From the NCBI GenBank assembly GCA_919901875.1, contig CAKKQG010000015.1:1-9840 (forward strand): a stretch of 9,840 nucleotides of DNA, read 5' to 3'. Made by a program: the position numbers and the translations under genes. The first letter of the stretch is position 1. Every line of letters starts with the position of its first letter. A model generated the notes under the pieces. It did not search any database, was not told where the DNA came from, and worked only from the letters and a program-made list of their open reading frames with translations. Positions 994-8,875 of the stretch are shown here, piece by piece. This DNA comes from Anaerolineales bacterium (GTDB lineage: Bacteria; Chloroflexota; Anaerolineae; Anaerolineales; VGOW01).

Positions 994-1001
994 GCTAAAC
1001 T
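994..1001 (+). promoter_or_regulatory. Candidate -10 element of the ilv leader transcript
   Basis: GCTAAACT here is identical to the eight bases 223-230 that form the best -10 candidate upstream of the preceding gene. The TAAACT core (996-1001) ends ten bases before the leader-peptide ATG at 1012, so a transcript starting 7-10 bases downstream would be leaderless or nearly so. This fits the absence of a Shine-Dalgarno there. No convincing -35 is visible. An imperfect inverted repeat (AGCCCGAT at 973-980 with ATCGGCT at 990-996) overlaps the element and could be an operator, but this is speculative. Confidence 0.3.
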
Positions 1002-1011
1002 CTCGCCCAAC

Positions 1012-1116
1012 ATGGACTACACACTCTCCCTCGTCCTTATCATCGTCATTAGCGGGCTCCTTCTTGAGGAGCAGTTTCCGTTTCGGGCGGCGATGGTGCG
1101 AGTAAGAATGAAGTAA
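1012..1116 (+). CDS. Putative branched-chain amino acid leader peptide of the ilv attenuator
   Basis: This 34-residue ORF begins MDYTLSLVLIIVISGLLLEE. Eleven of the fourteen residues from position 5 to 18 are Leu, Ile or Val, which is the composition expected of a regulatory leader peptide for an ilv operon and is comparable in length and character to the E. coli ilvL peptide. Its stop codon is 28 bases upstream of an intrinsic terminator. Its codons 24-30 form the 5' strand of an RNA pairing that would prevent that terminator. A ribosome waiting for charged tRNA at codons 10-18 (1039-1065) would leave that strand free. There is no Shine-Dalgarno; initiation may be on a near-leaderless mRNA. 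The alternative reading is a small single-helix membrane protein, since the same residues are hydrophobic. The surrounding RNA pairings favour the leader interpretation. Confidence 0.7.
   Translation: MDYTLSLVLIIVISGLLLEEQFPFRAAMVRVRMK
1030..1102 (+). promoter_or_regulatory. Possible protector (1:2) hairpin of the attenuator
   Basis: CATCGTC (1041-1047) can pair with GGCGATG (1089-1095) over seven positions including one G-U. CTCGT (1030-1034) can pair with GCGAG (1098-1102) over five. The two helices are separated by a small internal loop. The 5' side lies in the Leu/Ile/Val codon run and the 3' side overlaps the antiterminator strand, as in classical three-hairpin attenuators. A smaller hairpin (GCTCCT 1056-1061 with AGGAGC 1067-1072) sits in its loop. 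Seen by eye only, with no energy calculation. Confidence 0.4.
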
Positions 1117-1159
1117 CCATAGCCAATAAGCATCTCGTAACATCAACGAGCCGCCCGAA
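1082..1159 (+). promoter_or_regulatory. Antiterminator pairing of the ilv attenuator
   Basis: TTCGGGCGGC (1082-1091) is perfectly complementary to GCCGCCCGAA (1150-1159), a ten-base-pair helix. Immediately next to it, GATGGTGCGAG (1092-1102) pairs with CTCGTAACATC (1134-1144) with one mismatch and one G-U, leaving a five-base bulge (1145-1149). Together this is about twenty base pairs. The distal strand 1150-1159 includes the 5' arm of the terminator, so the two structures exclude each other. The proximal strand lies inside the leader-peptide coding region, downstream of its branched-chain codon run. This is the geometry of ribosome-mediated attenuation. Confidence 0.65.
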
Positions 1160-1180
1160 CACAGGGCGGCTCGTTTTTTT
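1145..1180 (+). terminator. Intrinsic terminator/attenuator upstream of the ilv genes
   Basis: A perfect stem of eleven to twelve base pairs, ACGAGCCGCCC (1146-1156) with GGGCGGCTCGT (1164-1174), has a seven-base loop and runs into seven T residues (1174-1180). This is the strongest intrinsic terminator in the window. It lies between the leader peptide and the first structural ORF on the same strand, and it competes with the antiterminator pairing. It is therefore read as an attenuator rather than the end of the upstream gene, which stops some 240 bases earlier. Confidence 0.85.
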
Positions 1181-1200: not shown

Positions 1201-1335
1201 ATGAATGACCAAACCAAAACCGAGACAACTGATATGCAATGCTACGATGGCGTGCCGTGCGAGCCAACCGTGACCGCCGACTCGGAAGCGGCGACATGGG
1301 TGAGTGAAGCGATGTTTGATGCATATAATGGCTGA
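1201..1335 (+). CDS. Small unrecognised 44-residue protein, first ORF after the attenuator
   Basis: I do not recognise this protein. The ATG at 1201 is preceded by AAAGGAG eight bases upstream, the best Shine-Dalgarno in the window, placed just behind the T-run of the attenuator. The 44 residues are acidic and Thr-rich at the N-terminus (MNDQTKTETTD), hold two cysteines (Cys14, Cys20) around a DGVPC segment, and end with a plausible amphipathic stretch containing Trp33 and SEAMFDAYNG. There is no membrane segment and no Leu/Ile/Val enrichment, so it is not a second leader peptide. It would be transcribed only when the attenuator is read through and so would be co-regulated with ilvD, 84 bases downstream. 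Its stop codon lies inside the first unit of a repeat tract. It could also be a translational primer ORF without a protein function. Confidence 0.5.
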   Translation: MNDQTKTETTDMQCYDGVPCEPTVTADSEAATWVSEAMFDAYNG

Positions 1336-1419: not shown

Positions 1420-3081
1420 ATGAGATCCGATCAAATTAAAAAAGGTTTCGAACGCGCCCCGCATCGCGCGTTGTTAAAAGCGACAGGCGTGGTGAACGAT
1501 GCCGACATGGGCAAGCCGTTCATCGCCATCGTCAACTCGTATGTAGACATTGTGCCGGGTCACGTCCATTTGCAATCGTTCGGCAAAATTGTGAAGGACG
1601 CCGTGCGAGCGGCTGGCGGCGTCCCCTTTGAATTCAACACCATCGGCGTGGATGATGGAATCGCCATGGGTCACAAGGGAATGAAATTCAGTTTGCCTTC
1701 GCGCGAGCTCATCGCCGATTGTGTCGAGACCATGATCGAAGCCCATCGGTTTGATGGCATGGTGTGCATCCCCAACTGCGACAAGATCGTGCCGGGGATG
1801 TTAATGGCGGCGATGCGTGTGGACATCCCCGCCATTTTTGTTTCGGGTGGACCGATGGCGGCCGGCAAAACACCCGATGGCGAAACCGTTGATCTCATTT
1901 CTGTTTTTGAGGGCGTGGGCGCGCTGCAAGCCGGGAAAATTGACGAAGCGCGACTCAAAGTATTAGAAGATTTTGCTTGCCCCTCTTGTGGATCATGTTC
2001 GGGGATGTTCACTGCCAACTCGATGAACTGCCTGATGGAAGTGTTGGGCATGGCGCTACCGTTCAACGGTTCTGCGCTCGCCCTCACTCCAGAGCGTGAA
2101 GCGTTAGCGAAGAAAGCGGCATCACTCATTCTCGATCTCATTGATAAAGACATCACGCCCCGAAAAATTTTAACCGCCGAAGCTCTCGACGACGCCTTCG
2201 CCCTCGACATGGCGATGGGCGGATCAACAAACACAGTATTGCACGCAATCGCTATCGCCCGCGAAGCCGGTCTCGAATATCCCCTCAGCCGCATCAACGC
2301 CGTCGCCGACAAAGTGCCGCATATCTGCAAAGTGAGTCCGGCGGGCAAGTGGCACATGGAAGATGTTCATCGCGCGGGCGGCATCCCGGCAATCTTAAAC
2401 GAAATTAAAGATGTTCTGCATTTGGATCGAATCACGGTGACGGGATCGACTCTGCGCGACTCGGTGAAGGATGCGCGCGTGAAAGATTCTCAGGTGATAC
2501 GGTCTCGCTCCGACGCCTATTCGCCGAAGGGCGGCTTGGCAGTTTTGTTCGGCAACCTTGCACCCGATGGAGCCATTGTGAAAGCGGGCGGCGTGGAAGA
2601 AAAAATGAAGCGCCATTCGGGCCCCGCTCGAATTTATGAATCGCAAGAATCGGCGATGCGTGGAATTTTGAATCGTGAAGTGCAAGAAGGTGACGTTGTT
2701 GTGATTCGTTACGAAGGACCGGCAGGCGGACCCGGAATGCAAGAGATGCTCTCGCCGACGAGCGCCATCATGGGCATGGGTCTTGGCGAAAAAGTTGCGC
2801 TTGTCACCGATGGTCGTTTCAGTGGCGGCACCCGCGGCGCGTGCATCGGTCATGTCAGCCCGGAAGCCGCCGCGCGTGGACCCATCGCCGCGCTGAAAAA
2901 CGGCGACATCATCGAGATCGATCTTTTCGCCCGCACACTCAACGTCAAATTATCATCTGAAGAAATTAAATCTCGCCTCAACGCACTTCCACCGTTTGTG
3001 CCAAATATTGAAAGCAAATGGTTACGACGTTACGCCAAGATGGTGGAGAGCGCGGATAAGGGCGCGGTGCTAAGGGATTGA
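1420..3081 (+). CDS. ilvD: Dihydroxyacid dehydratase
   Basis: IlvD dehydrates 2,3-dihydroxy-isovalerate and 2,3-dihydroxy-3-methylvalerate to the 2-oxoacids that are transaminated to valine and isoleucine. It is a cytosolic iron-sulfur enzyme. The 553-residue length is normal for the IlvD/Edd family. Visible landmarks are [10 protein letters not shown] (31-40), [15 protein letters not shown] (71-85), NCDK (Cys120, Lys122), the cluster motif [15 protein letters not shown] with Cys193 as the expected ligand, the MGGSTNT segment near 266-272, and TDGRFSGGT with the probable catalytic Ser468. VDDG in place of a cysteine-bearing version of that motif resembles the E. coli type enzyme, which carries a [4Fe-4S] cluster. 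I infer the same here without proof. The ATG at 1420 fits the family N-terminus but has no Shine-Dalgarno. It is the first large gene behind the attenuator. Confidence 0.97.
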
Positions 3082-3184: not shown

Positions 3185-4927
3185 ATGAAACGAACCGGCG
3201 CACAAATTATTTGGGAATGTTTAATTAAAGAAGGTGTGGAAGTTGTCTTCGGTTATCCGGGCGGAACAATTTTGCCCGCTTACGATGCGATGCTCGATTA
3301 TCCATCCGTTCATCACGTTTTGGTTCGGCACGAACAAGGCGGCACGCATATGGCGGATGGTTACGCTCGCGCTTCGGGCAAAGTGGGCGTGGCGTTTGCC
3401 ACATCGGGCCCGGGCGCGACGAATATGGTGACAGGCATCGCGACGGCGATGATGGATTCGTCACCCATCGTCTGTATCACCGGACAAGTGGGCAGCAGTT
3501 TGGTCGGTCTCGATGCGTTTCAAGAAACGGATGTAACCGGCGTGACTCTGCCGATCACCAAACATAATTATTTAGTGACGCGCGTGGAAGATATTGCCCG
3601 CACGATCCGCGAAGGATTTTATATCGCCAAGAGTGGTCGCCCGGGTCCGGTGTTGATTGACATCACCAAAGACGCGCAGCAGTTGTCGTGTGATTTTGAT
3701 TGGGACTCTGCCGCGCCGCGTTTGCCCGGTTATCGCCCCGACTTGCGCGCGCTGCCAAGCGAATATCAAAATGCGCTCTCGCTGATCAACAGCGCCAAGC
3801 GTCCGGTGATTCTTGCCGGTCACGGCGTGCTGCAATCGGGTGCGATGCAGGTGTTAAAAGATTTTGCCGAGAAGGCGCAAATTCCGGTAGCGATGACATT
3901 GCTCGGCATCGGCGGTCTCCCCGCGAATCATCCGCTCAACTTAGGGATGATGGGGATGCATGGTGAGGCGTGGGTTAATCATGCCATTCAACAAGCCGAT
4001 TTGTTGTTGGCGTTTGGGATGCGCTTTGATGATCGCGTGACGGGCAACGTGAAGACCTACGCGCCCAAAGCGAAAAAGATTCACATCGAGATCGATCCAT
4101 CGGAGTTGAACAAAGTGATCAAAGCCGATGTCGCGCTGGTGGGCGATCTGCGGGAAGTGTTAGAGGAAGTGCTGCCGCTGGTGGCTGTCGGCGACCGCGA
4201 GGAGTGGATCGATCACATCAACGAGATGAAAGGTGATTCGGCTGTACGCGATATTCAAAATCTACCTGACACCGGACATCTCTACGCCGCGCACGTCATC
4301 AACGATCTATGGCGCTACACGGAAGGCGAAGCATTAATCTGCACCGACGTCGGGCAGCATCAAATGTGGACGGCGCAATACTACAAACACAACAAACCTT
4401 TTAAATTGATCACGTCGGGCGGACTCGGCACGATGGGTTTTGGTTTGCCTTCGGCGATTGGCGCGAAGTTCGCCAAACCCAACGCCGAAGTGTGGGCGAT
4501 CTCCGGAGACGGCGGATTCCAAATGACCGCCGCCGAACTTTCTACCGCCGCGCAAGAAAATATCAAAGTGAACGTGGCGATCATCAACAACGGTTATCTG
4601 GGCATGGTGCGCCAGTGGCAAGAATTTTTCTACGACAAACGTTACGCCGCCACGCCGATGAAGAGTCCAGACTTCGTAAAGCTCGCCGAAGCGCACGGTC
4701 TCACTGGCATTCGCGTGACGGAGCGCTCGCAAGTTGAAAGCGCAATTCGCCAAGCGCAACAAACTAAAGGCACAGTCGTGATTGATTTCCGCGTTGAAAA
4801 AGAAGACAGCGTGTATCCAATGGTGCCAGCCGGTGCCGACTTGCACAATATGATTCGAAGACCGATGCCGAAGAAGCCGTTGAATGAAACGTTGAAGCAC
4901 GAAGAAGAAATGGAGTTCGCCAAATGA
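3185..4927 (+). CDS. ilvB: Acetohydroxyacid (acetolactate) synthase, large catalytic subunit
   Basis: IlvB condenses pyruvate with pyruvate or 2-oxobutyrate using thiamine diphosphate, the first common step of valine, leucine and isoleucine synthesis. It works as a complex with IlvN. The 580 residues show the three domains of the family in order. The N-terminal pyrimidine-binding domain has the catalytic Glu50 in VRHEQGGTHMADGYAR, followed by SGPGATN and AFQET. The central domain spans about 190-335. The C-terminal domain binds the cofactor diphosphate through GDGG (441-444) and ends that motif at NN (468-469). Trp478 in VRQWQEFF is the conserved active-site channel residue. The position matching plant Pro197 is Gly103, a non-proline as in many bacterial enzymes. 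GAGG lies four bases before the ATG. The stop overlaps the ilvN start (ATGA), implying coupled translation. Confidence 0.97.
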   Translation: MKRTGAQIIWECLIKEGVEVVFGYPGGTILPAYDAMLDYPSVHHVLVRHEQGGTHMADGYARASGKVGVAFATSGPGATNMVTGIATAMMDSSPIVCITGQVGSSLVGLDAFQETDVTGVTLPITKHNYLVTRVEDIARTIREGFYIAKSGRPGPVLIDITKDAQQLSCDFDWDSAAPRLPGYRPDLRALPSEYQNALSLINSAKRPVILAGHGVLQSGAMQVLKDFAEKAQIPVAMTLLGIGGLPANHPLNLGMMGMHGEAWVNHAIQQADLLLAFGMRFDDRVTGNVKTYAPKAKKIHIEIDPSELNKVIKADVALVGDLREVLEEVLPLVAVGDREEWIDHINEMKGDSAVRDIQNLPDTGHLYAAHVINDLWRYTEGEALICTDVGQHQMWTAQYYKHNKPFKLITSGGLGTMGFGLPSAIGAKFAKPNAEVWAISGDGGFQMTAAELSTAAQENIKVNVAIINNGYLGMVRQWQEFFYDKRYAATPMKSPDFVKLAEAHGLTGIRVTERSQVESAIRQAQQTKGTVVIDFRVEKEDSVYPMVPAGADLHNMIRRPMPKKPLNETLKHEEEMEFAK

Positions 4928-5472
4928 CCGCGCATACTTTAGTCGCTTATGTTGAAGACAAACCCGGCGTGTTGAATCGTGTCGCTTCACTTTTTCGGCG
5001 ACGCACATTCAACATTGAGTCGCTCACTGTCGGTCACACCGAACAGCCCGGCGTGAGCCGCATGACGATTGTGGTAGACACCGATGAGTTCGGCGCCCGC
5101 CGCGCGGAGGCGAATCTCTACAAATTAGTGAATGTGCTGCGCGTGGATGATGTGACGACTCAAGCAGCGGTGATGCGCGATCTGGCGTTGATCAAGGTGT
5201 CAGCGTCAGCCGCTACCCGCAGCGAGATTCTGCAACTGACCGATGTGTTCCGCGCCCGCACCGTTGACGTGACCAATGACTCACTCATCATTGAAATCAC
5301 CGGCACCGAAGATAAGATCGAAGGCTTGATCGAAGTGCTGCGTCCATTTGGGATCATCGAGATGGTTCGCACCGGCATTGTGGCAATGGGGCGCGGATCG
5401 AAATCGGTCAGCCCGAACCCGCCGTTGGTGGCGGCGCAAGTGATGGAGGTGGCGGGAGCAACAGCAAACTAA
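4924..5472 (+). CDS. ilvN: Acetohydroxyacid synthase, small regulatory subunit
   Basis: This subunit binds IlvB, raises its activity and confers feedback inhibition, usually by valine. The 182 residues contain an N-terminal ACT domain (about 4-80) beginning TLVAYVEDKPGVLNRVASLF. Gly15 and Asn30 (in FNIESL) match the valine-site Gly14 and Asn29 of E. coli IlvH. The C-terminal ALS_ss_C-type domain (about 84-160) includes VDVTNDSLIIEITGTEDK and the closing IIEMVRTGIVAMGRG. About twenty extra residues at the end (Pro/Ala/Val-rich) go beyond the family core. The start overlaps the ilvB stop by four bases, with GGAG eight bases upstream inside ilvB. Retention of both valine-site residues predicts a feedback-sensitive enzyme, which is an inference. 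Confidence 0.96.
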   Translation: MTAHTLVAYVEDKPGVLNRVASLFRRRTFNIESLTVGHTEQPGVSRMTIVVDTDEFGARRAEANLYKLVNVLRVDDVTTQAAVMRDLALIKVSASAATRSEILQLTDVFRARTVDVTNDSLIIEITGTEDKIEGLIEVLRPFGIIEMVRTGIVAMGRGSKSVSPNPPLVAAQVMEVAGATAN

Positions 5473-5558: not shown

Positions 5559-6578
5559 ATGGCAAAAATTTATTACGAAAGTTCGGCAGACATGGCGCTT
5601 ATCAAAGCGAAGAAGGTCGCGGTCATCGGTTATGGGTCGCAGGGTCACGCCCACTCGCTATGTTTAAAAGATAGCGGCGTGCAAGTGAAAGTCGGACTCG
5701 CCGATGGCAGTAAATCGAAGGCGAAAGCCGAAGCGGCTGGGCTAACGGTTGATTCGGTTGACAATGTTTCTAAGTGGGCAGATGTGATCATGATCCTTGC
5801 GCCCGACACTAAGCAAGGAAAAATTTACACAGACTCAATTGAAAAGAATCTGACCCAAGGCAAGATGCTGATGTTCGGTCACGGCTTCAACATTCGCTTC
5901 GGCACGATCACCCCGCCGAAAGACGTGGATGTGACGATGGTCGCGCCGAAGGCACCCGGTCATCGCGTGCGCGAAGTGTTTGTGGAAGGCGGCGGCACTC
6001 CGGCGTTGTTGGCGATTCATCAAGACGCAACGGGCAAAGCGAAAGAATTAACGTTGTCGTATGCAAAGGCATTAGGTTTAACTCGCGCCGGTGTTTTGGA
6101 AACCACGTTTGCCGAAGAAACGGAAACGGATTTGTTTGGCGAGCAGGTCGTATTGTGTGGTGGCATCAGTTCGTTGATCAAAGCCGCCTTTGAGACTCTG
6201 GTGAAAGCTGGTTACCAGCCCGAAGTGGCTTACTTCGAGTGTATGCACGAGATGAAGTTGATCGTCGATCTGATGTATCGCGGCGGGCTTAACTACATGC
6301 GCTATTCGGTCAGCGACACCGCCGAGTATGGCGATTACGTTTCGGGCCCGCGCATCATCAACGAAGAAACGTTGGGCGAGATGCAAAAGATTCTCGGCGA
6401 GATCAAAGATGGATCGTTTGCCAAGAAGTGGATTGATGAAAACGCAATAGGTCGCCCCAACTTCAACCAAATGCGTAAGCGTGATCAAGATCACTCGATT
6501 GAAAAAGTGGGCGCGGAACTGCGCGGCATGATGCCGTTCCTCAACCCGGTAACTGTTAAACCTGAAGAACAAGGTTAA
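5559..6578 (+). CDS. ilvC: Ketol-acid reductoisomerase, class I (short form)
   Basis: IlvC isomerises and reduces 2-acetolactate and 2-aceto-2-hydroxybutyrate to the dihydroxyacids used by IlvD, with Mg2+ and NAD(P)H. The 339 residues are the size of the short class I enzymes. The Rossmann motif is [10 protein letters not shown] (24-33). The cofactor-selecting loop reads [12 protein letters not shown], with Ser51 and Ser53 in the usual 2'-phosphate positions but Ala48 where a basic residue is common. His108 lies in FGHGFNI and Lys131 in VAPKAPGH. The metal ligands are Asp191 and Glu195 (ETDLFGEQ), Glu227 and Glu231 ([15 protein letters not shown]), with Ser252 in [15 protein letters not shown] six bases upstream supports the ATG at 5559. 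It follows ilvN after an 86-base repeat-filled gap. Confidence 0.97.
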
Positions 6579-6620: not shown

Positions 6621-8249
6621 ATGAACAATTACGTTCGTATCTTCGACACAACGTTACGCGACGGCGAACAATCGCCCGGCGCGACGATGACTTCAAACGA
6701 AAAATTGGAGGTGGCACGCACGCTGGCAAAGCTGGGAGTGGATGTGATCGAAGCGGGTTTCGCGGCGGCGTCACCGGATGATCTGGAAGCGATTAAACGG
6801 ATCGCGGTTGAAGTTGGATCAACTCCCGCGCCCGGACACGCCGAACCGCCGATCATCTGCAGCCTTGCCCGCGCCAACAAAGGCGACATTGATAAAGCGT
6901 GGGAAGCGGTGCAGCACGCCAAGCGTCCGCGCATTCATACTTTTCTCGCCACGTCGCCGATCCACATGAAATACAAACTCAAAATGGATGCGGAGCAAGT
7001 GATCGAGCGCGCGGCAGAGATGGTCGCCTACGCCAAAAGTTTTTGTGACGACGTCGAGTTCTCACCCGAAGATGCCGGACGCAGCGACCCGGAATTTTTG
7101 TATGTCGTGTTAACCGAAGTGATCAAAGCAGGCGCGACCACTCTCAACATCCCCGACACGGTGGGCTACACCACGCCCGATGAATTTGGAAATTTGATCG
7201 CGGGGATTATGAAAAACGTGAAGGGCATCGAGAACTGTGTCGTCTCCGTTCACTGCCACGATGATCTCGGCATGGCAACCGCCAACACGCTCGCCGGTAT
7301 TCGCGCCGGAGCGCGTCAAGCTGAAGTGACGATCAACGGTATTGGCGAGCGAGCCGGCAACACATCGTTGGAAGAGGTTGTGATGGCGTTGCACACGCGC
7401 AAGCCCATCTTCAATCTCGAAACAGGAATCGAAACGACTCAACTCATGCGCGCCAGCAAGCTCGTCAGCAACTACACCGGCATCGTGGTGCAGCCCAACA
7501 AAGCCATCGTCGGCGCGAACGCTTTCGCGCACGAAGCGGGCATTCATCAAGACGGAATGTTGAAGCACAACGAGACCTACGAGATCATGCGCCCCGAAAC
7601 CGTGGGCGTGACTCAAACCACATTGGTGCTGGGCAAACATTCGGGTCGTCACGCGCTTAAGGCTCGACTGGCTGAACTCGGCTACAACTTTAACGACGCT
7701 GAACTCGACAAAGCGTTTGAGCGATTTAAAAATCTCGCCGACAAAAAGAAAATGATCACCGATGCCGATCTCGAAGCGTTGGTGGCAGATGAACTGTATC
7801 AGCCGCGCGAAATTTTTTCGCTGGATGGACTGCAAGTCGCCTGCGGCACTATGGGGATGCCGACAGCCACCGTGCGGCTTAAAGGTCCTGATGGAACCGT
7901 TCACGTCCGCGCCGCCATTGGCACGGGTCCAGTGGACGCCGTTTACAAAGCGATTGACTCTGTTGTGCAATCGCCGAATACGTTGTTAGAATTTGTGATT
8001 CACGCCGTGACTCAAGGCATTGATGCCTTAGGTGAAGTGACCGTTCGCATTGAAGGCACCAACGGACAGCGCACCTTTGATGCACAAGATGAAGCCGAAC
8101 ACACGCGCACCTTCGGTGGTCACGGCGCGGATACCGACATCATCGTCGCCAGCGCGAAGGCGTATCTCTCGGCGTTGAATAAATTGTTAGTAGCGAGCGG
8201 GGAATACGGTGAGGCGGAGAAAGCATCACAAGTCGAAGCCGTTGCCTAG
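6621..8249 (+). CDS. leuA: 2-isopropylmalate synthase
   Basis: LeuA joins acetyl-CoA to 2-oxoisovalerate, committing valine-pathway carbon to leucine. The 542 residues comprise an N-terminal TIM-barrel (about 4-275) with [16 protein letters not shown] (Arg13 and Asp14 at the active site), the metal-binding HCHDD (His211, His213) and the signature GIGERAGN (240-247). A linker region with [12 protein letters not shown] follows, and then the LeuA dimer/allosteric domain from about residue 400 ([10 protein letters not shown]) to [23 protein letters not shown]. That domain normally gives leucine feedback inhibition. A TTG at 6594 would extend the protein by nine residues but lies inside the palindrome and would add a non-family N-terminus, so the ATG at 6621 is chosen. 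No Shine-Dalgarno is visible; the palindrome occupies its place. A short Pro-rich insertion ([12 protein letters not shown], near 60-75) looks lineage-specific. Confidence 0.96.
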
Positions 8250-8261
8250 CGCAGAGGATTT

Positions 8262-8603
8262 TTACAAATCTAGATGATCTTCTAACGCACGATCTACATC
8301 TTCCATTCTCTCATCAGAGAGATGTCCTGCTTTATGCGTGAGGCGAGATTTATCTAGCGTGCGAATTTGGAAAACTAATGCGACAGAATCTTTAGGCAAT
8401 CCCGATTCGGAAGTGGGGATGAGAACTGTAAACAAAAAACGGCTTGCTCGCAGGTTGCTGGTGAGAGGAACAACTGTGATAGTTGGAATGAGCGCGTTGG
8501 CTTCATCGTTCTGAACGATTAGAACTGGGCGCGTGCCAGCTTGTTCAACACCTACTGTTGGGTCAAGGTTGGCAAAGAAAATATCGCCTCGTTTGATTTC
8601 CAT
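8262..8603 (-). CDS. mazF: MazF/PemK-family toxin (mRNA interferase)
   Basis: MazF-type toxins cleave mRNA at short sequence motifs when freed from their antitoxin. The 113 residues match the family from end to end: KRGDIFFANLDPTVGVEQAG, then TRPVLIVQND with Arg25, then VVPLTSN with Thr48. Both are at the positions that are catalytic in the B. subtilis enzyme. QIRTLDKSRL and the C-terminal HLSDERMEDVDRAL helix follow. The start lies two bases after the antitoxin stop, so the pair is translated together with the antitoxin first. The gene is convergent with leuA and ends 12 bases from the leuA stop, with no intrinsic terminator between them. No inactivating change is visible. Confidence 0.93.
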   Translation of the reverse strand: MEIKRGDIFFANLDPTVGVEQAGTRPVLIVQNDEANALIPTITVVPLTSNLRASRFLFTVLIPTSESGLPKDSVALVFQIRTLDKSRLTHKAGHLSDERMEDVDRALEDHLDL

Positions 8604-8605
8604 TT

Positions 8606-8875
8606 TTACTTTGCTAACCGTTTCTCAAATTTATAAAGCGACTCGTTTTCGACGGACAACCATTTCTCATCGGCAATGTCTTCAACAAGTTCGTGCCACA
8701 TTGCCGCGAGCTCCGCATATTGCTTGGCGCGTTGTTCACGCAATTTGCGCTTTTGCATTAAACGCAGGTATTCCATAACTGCGGCGTTGACAATAGCATC
8801 TATACTTTGATGCGTTTCAATCGCCAGTGGTTCAATTTCGGATAAAAGTTTTGGAGAGAGGGTGATGGTGATCAT
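8606..8875 (-). CDS. Ribbon-helix-helix-like antitoxin of the MazF pair
   Basis: An 89-residue protein immediately precedes the MazF-like toxin. The N-terminus MITITLSPKLLSEIEPLA, followed by a helix with SIDAIVNAAVMEYLRLMQ, has the strand-helix-helix pattern of ribbon-helix-helix DNA-binding antitoxins (about 1-45). The rest is a charged helical segment (KRKLREQRAKQYAELAAMWHELVEDI) followed by a tail with Trp, Tyr and Phe residues that would bind and mask the toxin. As in related pairs it is expected to repress its own promoter. A partial Shine-Dalgarno AGGTG lies four bases before the ATG, and a perfect TATAAT lies 18 bases upstream of the start. The family call rests on pattern and on operon position. 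Confidence 0.8.
   Translation of the reverse strand: MITITLSPKLLSEIEPLAIETHQSIDAIVNAAVMEYLRLMQKRKLREQRAKQYAELAAMWHELVEDIADEKWLSVENESLYKFEKRLAK

What the first reader, a model, noticed from the sequence alone, without database searches (positions are those of the whole stretch)
994..1180. Complete ribosome-mediated attenuator upstream of an ilv operon
A 34-codon ORF with 11 Leu/Ile/Val among residues 5-18 is followed by a 10+10 bp antiterminator pairing (1082-1102 with 1134-1159) and a mutually exclusive 11-12 bp terminator with seven T residues. A protector pairing (1030-1047 with 1089-1102) is also possible. A ribosome stalled at codons 10-18 would leave the antiterminator strand free; one reaching the stop would hinder it. 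Leader, pairings and downstream gene functions agree. The peptide has no Shine-Dalgarno and a -10 candidate ends only ten bases before its ATG, suggesting a near-leaderless leader peptide. I do not know of a description of this element in Chloroflexota.
Basis: partly seen in the sequence, partly recalled or inferred. Interest (0 to 1): 0.85.

Follow-up and report, generated by a model that had tools for sequence, protein, structure and literature searches.

The report
Ribosome-controlled attenuator before ilv operon
Just before a set of leucine/isoleucine/valine-making genes, this bacterium's DNA carries a tiny reading frame packed with those amino acids' codons and two possible RNA foldings that share the same bases, so a ribosome stalled there would likely keep the genes switched on when the amino acids run short; the same layout recurs before the same genes in many related Chloroflexota genomes.

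Summary
Window 1012-1116 is a 34-codon ORF with 11 Leu/Ile/Val in residues 5-18. A 12-bp terminator (1145-1175) with a U run follows; its 5' arm and loop can instead pair 10 bp with 1082-1091. Downstream lie ilvD-ilvB-ilvN-ilvC-leuA. A covariance model of the leader matches 77 of the 80 best named ilvD relatives, mostly Anaerolineae/Chloroflexi MAGs. The antiterminator, not in that model, covaries in those matches (11 of the 77 loci repeat a training leader). It beats shuffles at p<0.05 in 77 of 84 leaders: the window and 83 new hits. In folding, a ribosome on the control codons raises median antiterminator probability from 0.01 to 0.81; at the stop codon it is 0.00. The window's own copy discriminates poorly (0.69 free, 0.81 stalled, 0.73 at stop). 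Relatives also have Met-, His- and Phe/Tyr-rich leaders before met, his and phe genes. Verdict: a classical ribosome-mediated attenuator, a new member of a known kind, in a phylum where my searches of open-licence papers listed none. All evidence is computational; the near-leaderless claim is unproven for this copy.

The parts
1012..1116 (+). Leader peptide ORF (34 codons, ATG..TAA)
   Evidence: Sequence; L/I/V-rich leader ORFs at the same place in 25 of 34 ilvD loci, the window's included
1024..1065 (+). Control codons 5-18: 11 Leu/Ile/Val codons
   Evidence: Sequence; 1 of 200 shuffles of the window has such an ORF
1030..1047 (+). Region 1: 5' strand of the protector (anti-antiterminator), pairs with 1086-1102
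   Evidence: MFE of 1004-1182; in 57 of 84 leaders at least 5 of 8 antiterminator-core bases pair upstream in the MFE
1056..1072 (+). Apical hairpin inside the leader ORF (possible RNA polymerase pause hairpin)
   Evidence: Covariation: 93.4% of cells paired, 4 of 6 pairs with both-side changes
1082..1091 (+). Region 2: antiterminator 5' strand, inside the leader ORF
1092..1102 (+). Antiterminator extension strand, pairs with 1134-1144 (9 bp); examined in the window only
1145..1175 (+). Intrinsic terminator hairpin (12 bp, 7-nt loop)
1150..1159 (+). Region 3: antiterminator 3' strand, shared with the terminator 5' arm and loop
1174..1180 (+). U tract of the terminator
   Evidence: Sequence
996..1001 (+). 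-10 candidate TAAACT, 10 nt before the leader ATG; no -35 found; weak
   Evidence: Sequence; promoter score below 9 for the window
1420..3081 (+). ilvD, dihydroxy-acid dehydratase
   Evidence: TIGR00110 above cut-off
3185..4927 (+). ilvB, acetolactate synthase large subunit
   Evidence: TIGR00118 above cut-off
4924..5472 (+). ilvN, acetolactate synthase small subunit
   Evidence: TIGR00119 above cut-off
5559..6578 (+). ilvC, ketol-acid reductoisomerase
   Evidence: TIGR00465 above cut-off
6627..8249 (+). leuA, 2-isopropylmalate synthase (start uncertain; the ORF list gives TTG 6594)
   Evidence: TIGR00973 above cut-off

Best explanation
This is predicted to be a classical ribosome-mediated transcription attenuator that sets expression of the ilvDBNC-leuA operon by the supply of charged Leu-, Ile- and Val-tRNA. 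The sequence holds a leader ORF with a Leu/Ile/Val codon run, an intrinsic terminator, and an antiterminator that uses the terminator's 5' arm and loop (shown). When any of the three amino acids is short, a ribosome would stall on codons 5-18 and cover region 1, so region 2 (1082-1091) would pair with region 3 (1150-1159) before the terminator's 3' arm is made, and polymerase would read on into ilvD (inferred). When they are plentiful the ribosome would run to the stop codon, or never load, region 2 would be held by region 1 or by the ribosome, and the 12-bp terminator would form (inferred). The hairpin at 1056-1072, conserved by covariation, may pause polymerase so the ribosome can catch up (guess).
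For: (1) All parts in order before the right operon. (2) Terminator and apical hairpin covary over 26 leaders: 92.2% of cells paired, 13 of 18 pairs changed on both sides. (3) The antiterminator covaries: 83.1% of cells paired against 28-50% when slid, 8 of 12 pairs changed on both sides. Its pair 76-165 takes six standard types, and its 3' partner lies in the terminator loop, so the terminator cannot explain it. (4) Model R1 contains only terminator and apical hairpin. In its 86 matches at named ilvD loci the antiterminator is 79.2% paired (22-55% slid), 10 of 12 pairs with both-side changes, score 0.223 against 0.132 shuffled; of those 77 loci 11 repeat a training leader. In 83 fetched hits, none identical to a training leader, plus the window, it beats dinucleotide shuffles at p<0.05 in 77 of 84. 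(5) A ribosome footprint on the run raises P(antiterminator) from a median of 0.01 (none) to 0.81; at the stop 0.00; at the start codon 0.44 (84 leaders). (6) 64 of 87 fetched model hits have ilvB (39) or ilvD (25) as first of five reference genes within 500 nt. (7) Codon identity follows the pathway: His-rich leaders with terminators before 18 of 30 hisD loci, 0 of 30 pheA and 0 of 27 trpE loci; Met-rich leaders before a Met/Cys-metabolism gene in 5 genomes.
Against: No transcript or reporter data. For the window copy the computed probability before the 3' arm exists is 0.69 free, 0.81 stalled, 0.73 at stop, and at full length the terminator wins by 4.7-9.0 kcal/mol in every ribosome state tried, so its switching must rest on kinetics. 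Region 2 ends 23 nt before the stop codon, further than in most relatives (median 12 nt by the script's core measure, 27 for the window), so a ribosome at the stop would not cover it. In 4 of 84 leaders the stalled state scores lower than the at-stop state by more than 0.2. The swap control is only moderate: a median of 13% of foreign region-2 strands pair at least as well as the own one. 8 of 34 ilvD loci show no such leader. In Streptomyces coelicolor, changing candidate regulatory codons of an ilvB leader had no effect (PMC1262725, passages).
Confidence: 0.9

Rival explanations
1. The ORF encodes a genuine small membrane protein (a hydrophobic LIV-rich helix), and the hairpin after it is simply that gene's terminator.
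For: The Leu/Ile/Val stretch is hydrophobic enough for a membrane helix (inference), and C-terminal residues look similar between some families.
Against: The antiterminator strand that encodes the C-terminal residues covaries with the terminator loop, which a peptide function does not need. Leaders before his and met genes have His or Met in place of the run. Length and C-terminus vary widely.
Confidence: 0.04
2. A ligand- or tRNA-binding RNA (T-box, ppGpp or other riboswitch) controls the terminator, and the ORF is incidental.
For: T-boxes and riboswitches control ilv genes in other phyla (established knowledge; a ppGpp riboswitch of branched-chain genes is mentioned in PMC8632094 passages).
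Against: No Rfam match in the window at E<=1. In 14 related loci 7 matches at E<=0.5, all below gathering scores; two are amino-acid leaders (Leu_leader at L016, E 0.04; Phe_leader at L123, E 0.37) and none is a T-box or riboswitch. The unpaired RNA is poorly conserved: 6 invariant positions in the alignment of 26.
Confidence: 0.03
3. The hairpin is a plain constitutive terminator or insulator, and ilvD has its own downstream promoter.
For: A 239-nt gap with a small ORF lies between the U tract and ilvD in the window; downstream promoters were not excluded.
Against: In 13 of the loci the terminator sits only 28-68 nt before ilvD, and antiterminator covariation has no role in a plain terminator.
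Confidence: 0.03

Closest known systems
ilvBNC attenuator of Corynebacterium glutamicum / ilvB-II uORF motif
   Same: Short leader ORF with Ile/Val/Leu codons, terminator, antiterminator and anti-antiterminator before ilv genes; transcription starts 1 nt before the leader start codon, a precedent for a near-leaderless leader peptide (PMC11857589 passages; PMC11109978 passages)
   Different: 15-residue leader and ilvB first in C. glutamicum; motif representatives all in Corynebacterium. Here 34 codons, ilvD first, the antiterminator strand inside the ORF and a hairpin within the control region. The two were not aligned with each other
Classical ilv/leu/his/thr attenuators of Proteobacteria (ilvGMEDA, ilvBN, leuABCD; Rfam Leu_leader RF00512)
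   Same: Control-codon run, terminator/antiterminator competition, protector pairing (recalled textbook anatomy)
   Different: No Rfam match above gathering score; different sequence, phylum and operon order
Leader peptides with terminators before ilvB in Corynebacterium, Mycobacterium and Streptomyces
   Same: Runs of Ile/Val/Leu codons and a poly-U terminator (PMC1262725 passages)
   Different: There the ORFs overlap the terminator and codon changes in S. coelicolor had no effect (same passages); here a covarying antiterminator exists
ilvD motif (WRC-18-2) of Veillonella and ilvB motif (WRC-14-1) of Leptospira
   Same: Candidate cis-regulatory RNAs directly before ilvD or ilvB (PMC8632094 passages)
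   Different: Described as weak riboswitch candidates; no leader ORF mentioned in the passages seen

Membership tests
Ribosome-mediated transcription attenuator | Leader ORF with a run of codons for the amino acid(s) made by the operon | tested here: met
   11 L/I/V of 14 before ilvDBNC-leuA; run retained in relatives
Ribosome-mediated transcription attenuator | Intrinsic terminator between leader ORF and first gene | tested here: met
   1145-1175 plus U tract; covariation. Termination itself not measured
Ribosome-mediated transcription attenuator | Antiterminator mutually exclusive with the terminator, supported by compensatory change | tested here: met
Ribosome-mediated transcription attenuator | Ribosome position on the control codons changes which structure forms | tested here: inconclusive
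   Folding with footprint masks: met over 84 leaders (median 0.01 to 0.81) but weak for the window copy; computation only
Ribosome-mediated transcription attenuator | Leader ORF is translated and operon transcription responds to amino-acid limitation | not testable with these tools
   Needs reporter, ribosome profiling or term-seq
Amino-acid leader families held in Rfam (e.g. Leu_leader) | Match to the family's covariance model above gathering score | tested here: not met
   No match in the window at E<=1; related loci only below gathering score
Corynebacterium ilvB-II motif | Match to the motif's consensus | not tested
   No model of it was at hand; it was read about only
T-box riboswitch | Match to the T-box model | tested here: not met
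   No T-box match in the window or in 14 related loci
Leaderless mRNA | Transcription start at or within a few nt of the leader start codon | tested here: inconclusive
   Window has only a weak -10 candidate. In 44 of 106 leaders with a good promoter match the -10 ends 3-41 nt before the start codon; Met leaders 7-10 nt

The most novel reading that the evidence does not exclude
Anaerolineae, and other Chloroflexota, run amino-acid supply through a whole set of ribosome-mediated attenuators whose control codons are matched to the pathway: Leu/Ile/Val before ilv and leu genes, His before his operons, Phe/Tyr before pheA, and Met before a Met/Cys-metabolism gene. A methionine-codon attenuator, read from a leaderless leader peptide, would be a sensor type for which my searches found no precedent.
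Probability: 0.65. Interest if true: 0.7.

Novelty: new member of a known kind. Interest (0 to 1): 0.52.

Why it matters
It extends translation-coupled transcription attenuation, best known from Proteobacteria and Actinobacteria, to another phylum, with comparative support from pairings that share strands and each show compensatory change. If it works, transcription and translation must be coupled closely enough in Chloroflexota for this control. Named strains carry the element (Flexilinea flocculi TC1, Leptolinea tardivitalis YMTK-2, Bellilinea caldifistulae GOMI-1; that they are in culture is recalled), so the claim can be tested. The Met and His leaders of relatives give built-in specificity controls.

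Tried and rejected
Rfam on the window and 14 relatives: nothing above gathering score. Small-membrane-protein, riboswitch/T-box and plain-terminator readings were considered and set aside as given under rivals. The extension helix 1092-1102/1134-1144 is present in the window; I did not test it in relatives. One common protector register was not found: the consensus folds of two families and the genus place it differently, so I counted it per sequence only (57 of 84). A trp attenuator in the order was looked for: Trp-rich leader with terminator at 1 of 27 trpE loci, no better than at hisD (1 of 30) or pheA (2 of 30) loci. The swap control (own against foreign region 2) is moderate: a median of 13% of foreign strands pair at least as well, 21 of 83 loci under 5%, because the core is shared across families.

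Rows dropped and choices made: from 87 fetched hits I dropped L137, L151 and L152 (judged chance matches by eye: pilin-like, short hydrophobic and TatA-like ORFs) and L160 (no terminator found by my script), leaving 83. One leader lacking 70 nt upstream fell out. In one search I scanned 27 of the 30 trpE loci fetched. The fetched hits were chosen by me from the listed best matches, mostly one per genus plus second copies, so their fractions are not class-wide rates. The tallies at E<=0.01 (order 116 of 201, class 222 of 396, phylum 70 of 400) include chance terminator matches. One search kept the best 80 of 585 relatives. Promoter and SD expectations come from single-base shuffles.

Full report
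What is there. The window is one contig (G000:C15) of a genome 64% complete, 2.6 Mb in 484 contigs. The nearest named relatives of its ilvD gene are Anaerolineales and Anaerolineae MAGs at up to 80% protein identity, so I place it in Anaerolineae, Chloroflexota, by inference. The operon is ilvD-ilvB-ilvN-ilvC-leuA, each above an NCBIfam cut-off.

Relatives. IlvD searches gave 5 of 5 genomes in the family and 242 of 298 in a class sample. Of the 34 ilvD loci read (L002-L035, the window's own included), 25 have a Leu/Ile/Val-rich leader ORF plus terminator upstream, 1 (L003) is cut by the contig end inside the leader but keeps the terminator, and 8 (L028-L035) have no such pair by this test. In some of those 8 a coding sequence appears to run up close to ilvD, so ilvD may not be the first gene there. 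One locus (L021) has two leader-terminator modules in tandem.

Structure. An alignment of 26 leaders from those 25 loci (A2) supports the terminator and a hairpin inside the ORF (92.2% of cells paired, 13 of 18 pairs with both-side changes, 0 of 500 shuffles as high on the covariation score) and the antiterminator (83.1%, 8 of 12 pairs, 0 of 500 on the score). The strongest single item is antiterminator pair 76-165: six standard pair types, with its 3' member in the terminator loop. The relatives are not independent; the slid controls, which keep that relatedness, give 28-60% paired.

Test of the antiterminator on further loci. I built a covariance model (R1) with the terminator and apical hairpin only. 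It matched 116 of 201 genomes of the order, 222 of 396 of the class and 70 of 400 of the phylum at E<=0.01, and 77 of the 80 best named ilvD loci at E<=0.001. Nine of those 77 have two matches; in one (L179) the second is the Met leader described below. Of the 77, 11 repeat a training leader, 7 a fetched hit and 59 neither. From the hit lists I fetched 80 stretches holding 87 hits, none identical to a training leader. 39 have ilvB and 25 ilvD as first of five reference genes within 500 nt; 23 do not. The antiterminator, not in the model, beats dinucleotide shuffles at p<0.05 in 77 of 84 leaders (83 hits plus the window) and at p<=0.01 in 39. It covaries in the 86 matches of the named loci (79.2% paired, 10 of 12 pairs with both-side changes).

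How it would work. With a ribosome footprint (17 nt behind, 13 nt ahead of the A site) on each run codon, the mean probability that region 2 pairs with the terminator's 5' arm and loop before the 3' arm exists has a median of 0.81. Without a ribosome it is 0.01, with one at the stop 0.00, with one at the start codon 0.44. The stalled mean exceeds the free state in 79 of 84 leaders and the at-stop state in 69 of 84; in 4 of 84 it is lower than at the stop by more than 0.2. In several of the leaders printed, stalling on the last run codons gives low values. For the window copy the values are 0.81 stalled, 0.69 free and 0.73 at stop, and the full-length terminator is more stable in each of six ribosome states by 4.7-9.0 kcal/mol. 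So the family behaves as a ribosome-controlled switch in silico, while this copy would have to depend on timing. Its region 2 lies 23 nt upstream of the stop, further than in most relatives.

Start of the leader. Good sigma-70-like promoter matches (at least 9 of 12) end 3-41 nt before the start codon in 44 of 106 leaders against 3.5 expected; SD-like tetramers occur in 30 of 106 against 11.4 expected. Three same-genus relatives have TATACT ending 28 nt before a GTG start with GGAG between. The window has only TAAACT at 10 nt. Short 5' ends thus look common, but near-leaderless is unproven here. C. glutamicum ilvBNC, whose start site is 1 nt from the leader start codon, shows that it is possible (PMC11857589 passages).

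Specificity. Met-rich leaders with antiterminator and terminator precede a gene of the cystathionine-gamma-synthase family in 5 genomes of one family (G407, G306, G375, G421, G389). The run has 3 (G375) to 6 Met. The gene matches several Met/Cys enzymes below their cut-offs (for G407), so its exact reaction is open. Between G407 and G421 one antiterminator pair changes on both sides (T-A to C-G, read). More distant paralogues in the same 21 genomes show no such leader (20 loci read). In all five an R1 match for an ilv-type leader follows the gene on the same contig. His-rich leaders with terminators precede 18 of 30 hisD loci and 0 of 57 pheA or trpE loci; Phe/Tyr-rich ones 3 of 30 pheA loci and 0 of 57 others; Trp-rich ones 1 of 27 trpE loci but also 1 of 30 hisD and 2 of 30 pheA loci. 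I did not test antiterminators for the His leaders, nor for the Phe/Tyr leaders; the Phe leader at L138 gave p 0.09. Control codons that track the downstream pathway argue for codon sensing and against a peptide function.

Literature. Seven searches for attenuators or leader peptides with Chloroflexi/Anaerolineae or comparative terms listed no description of an ilv attenuator in Chloroflexota; two searches returned 0 papers, the others lists (most of them capped) judged by title and abstract start. Passages were read in seven papers. A leader-gene survey names Chloroflexi only among groups too thinly sampled for its test (PMC4833913 passages). Two searches for methionine leader attenuators listed none; one candidate, PMC9373788, has the terms only in its reference list. 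Lopatovskaya et al., a comparative survey cited in PMC4833913, is not held and was not read, so an earlier prediction there is possible.

Verdict. A classical ribosome-mediated attenuator with strong comparative support: a new member of a known kind. Its interest lies in its reach across the phylum and in the Met version rather than in the mechanism.

Noticed in passing
window 1201-1335 (+): Small ORF (44 aa, MNDQTK...SEAMFDAYNG) with an AAAGGAG site between the terminator and ilvD; ORFs of 32-98 codons with a similar C-terminal motif (W followed by acidic residues and YN) sit at the same place in L003-L006, L018, L020 and L025. No NCBIfam match.
   Followed up: partly
L149 (484), L150 (492), L153 (445), L246, L247: Met-rich leader ORFs (e.g. 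MFAMMMSMLMPRSRAWVV) with TTGACA-N17-TA(G/A)AAT ending 7-10 nt before the ATG, antiterminator and terminator, before a cystathionine-gamma-synthase-family gene.
   Followed up: partly
L275-L304 (hisD loci): His-rich leaders such as MQLTALHHHHHHFSPF followed by a terminator in 18 of the 30 hisD loci fetched from the order; antiterminators not tested.
   Followed up: partly
L330, L334, L138: Phe/Tyr-rich leaders (e.g. MKGYWSFFYAYFYGAP) with terminators before prephenate dehydratase genes.
   Followed up: partly
L087, L117, L148: Model hits before a branched-chain-type ABC transporter gene (below cut-offs), leuC and ilvE, so the element is not confined to ilvD/ilvB. The antiterminator is supported at L087 (p 0.02) and L117 (p 0.005), not at L148 (p 0.67).
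   Followed up: partly
L021, L143 (same locus as L231), L144, L147, L192, L210, L229, L236, L237, L239, L242: Two model matches in tandem, before ilvD in all but L147, where the stretch ends first. Possibly graded or multi-amino-acid control.
   Followed up: no
window 8262-8603 (-) and 8606-8875 (-): MazF-like toxin gene (NCBIfam matches below cut-off) with a small upstream ORF without family match, convergent with leuA.
   Followed up: no
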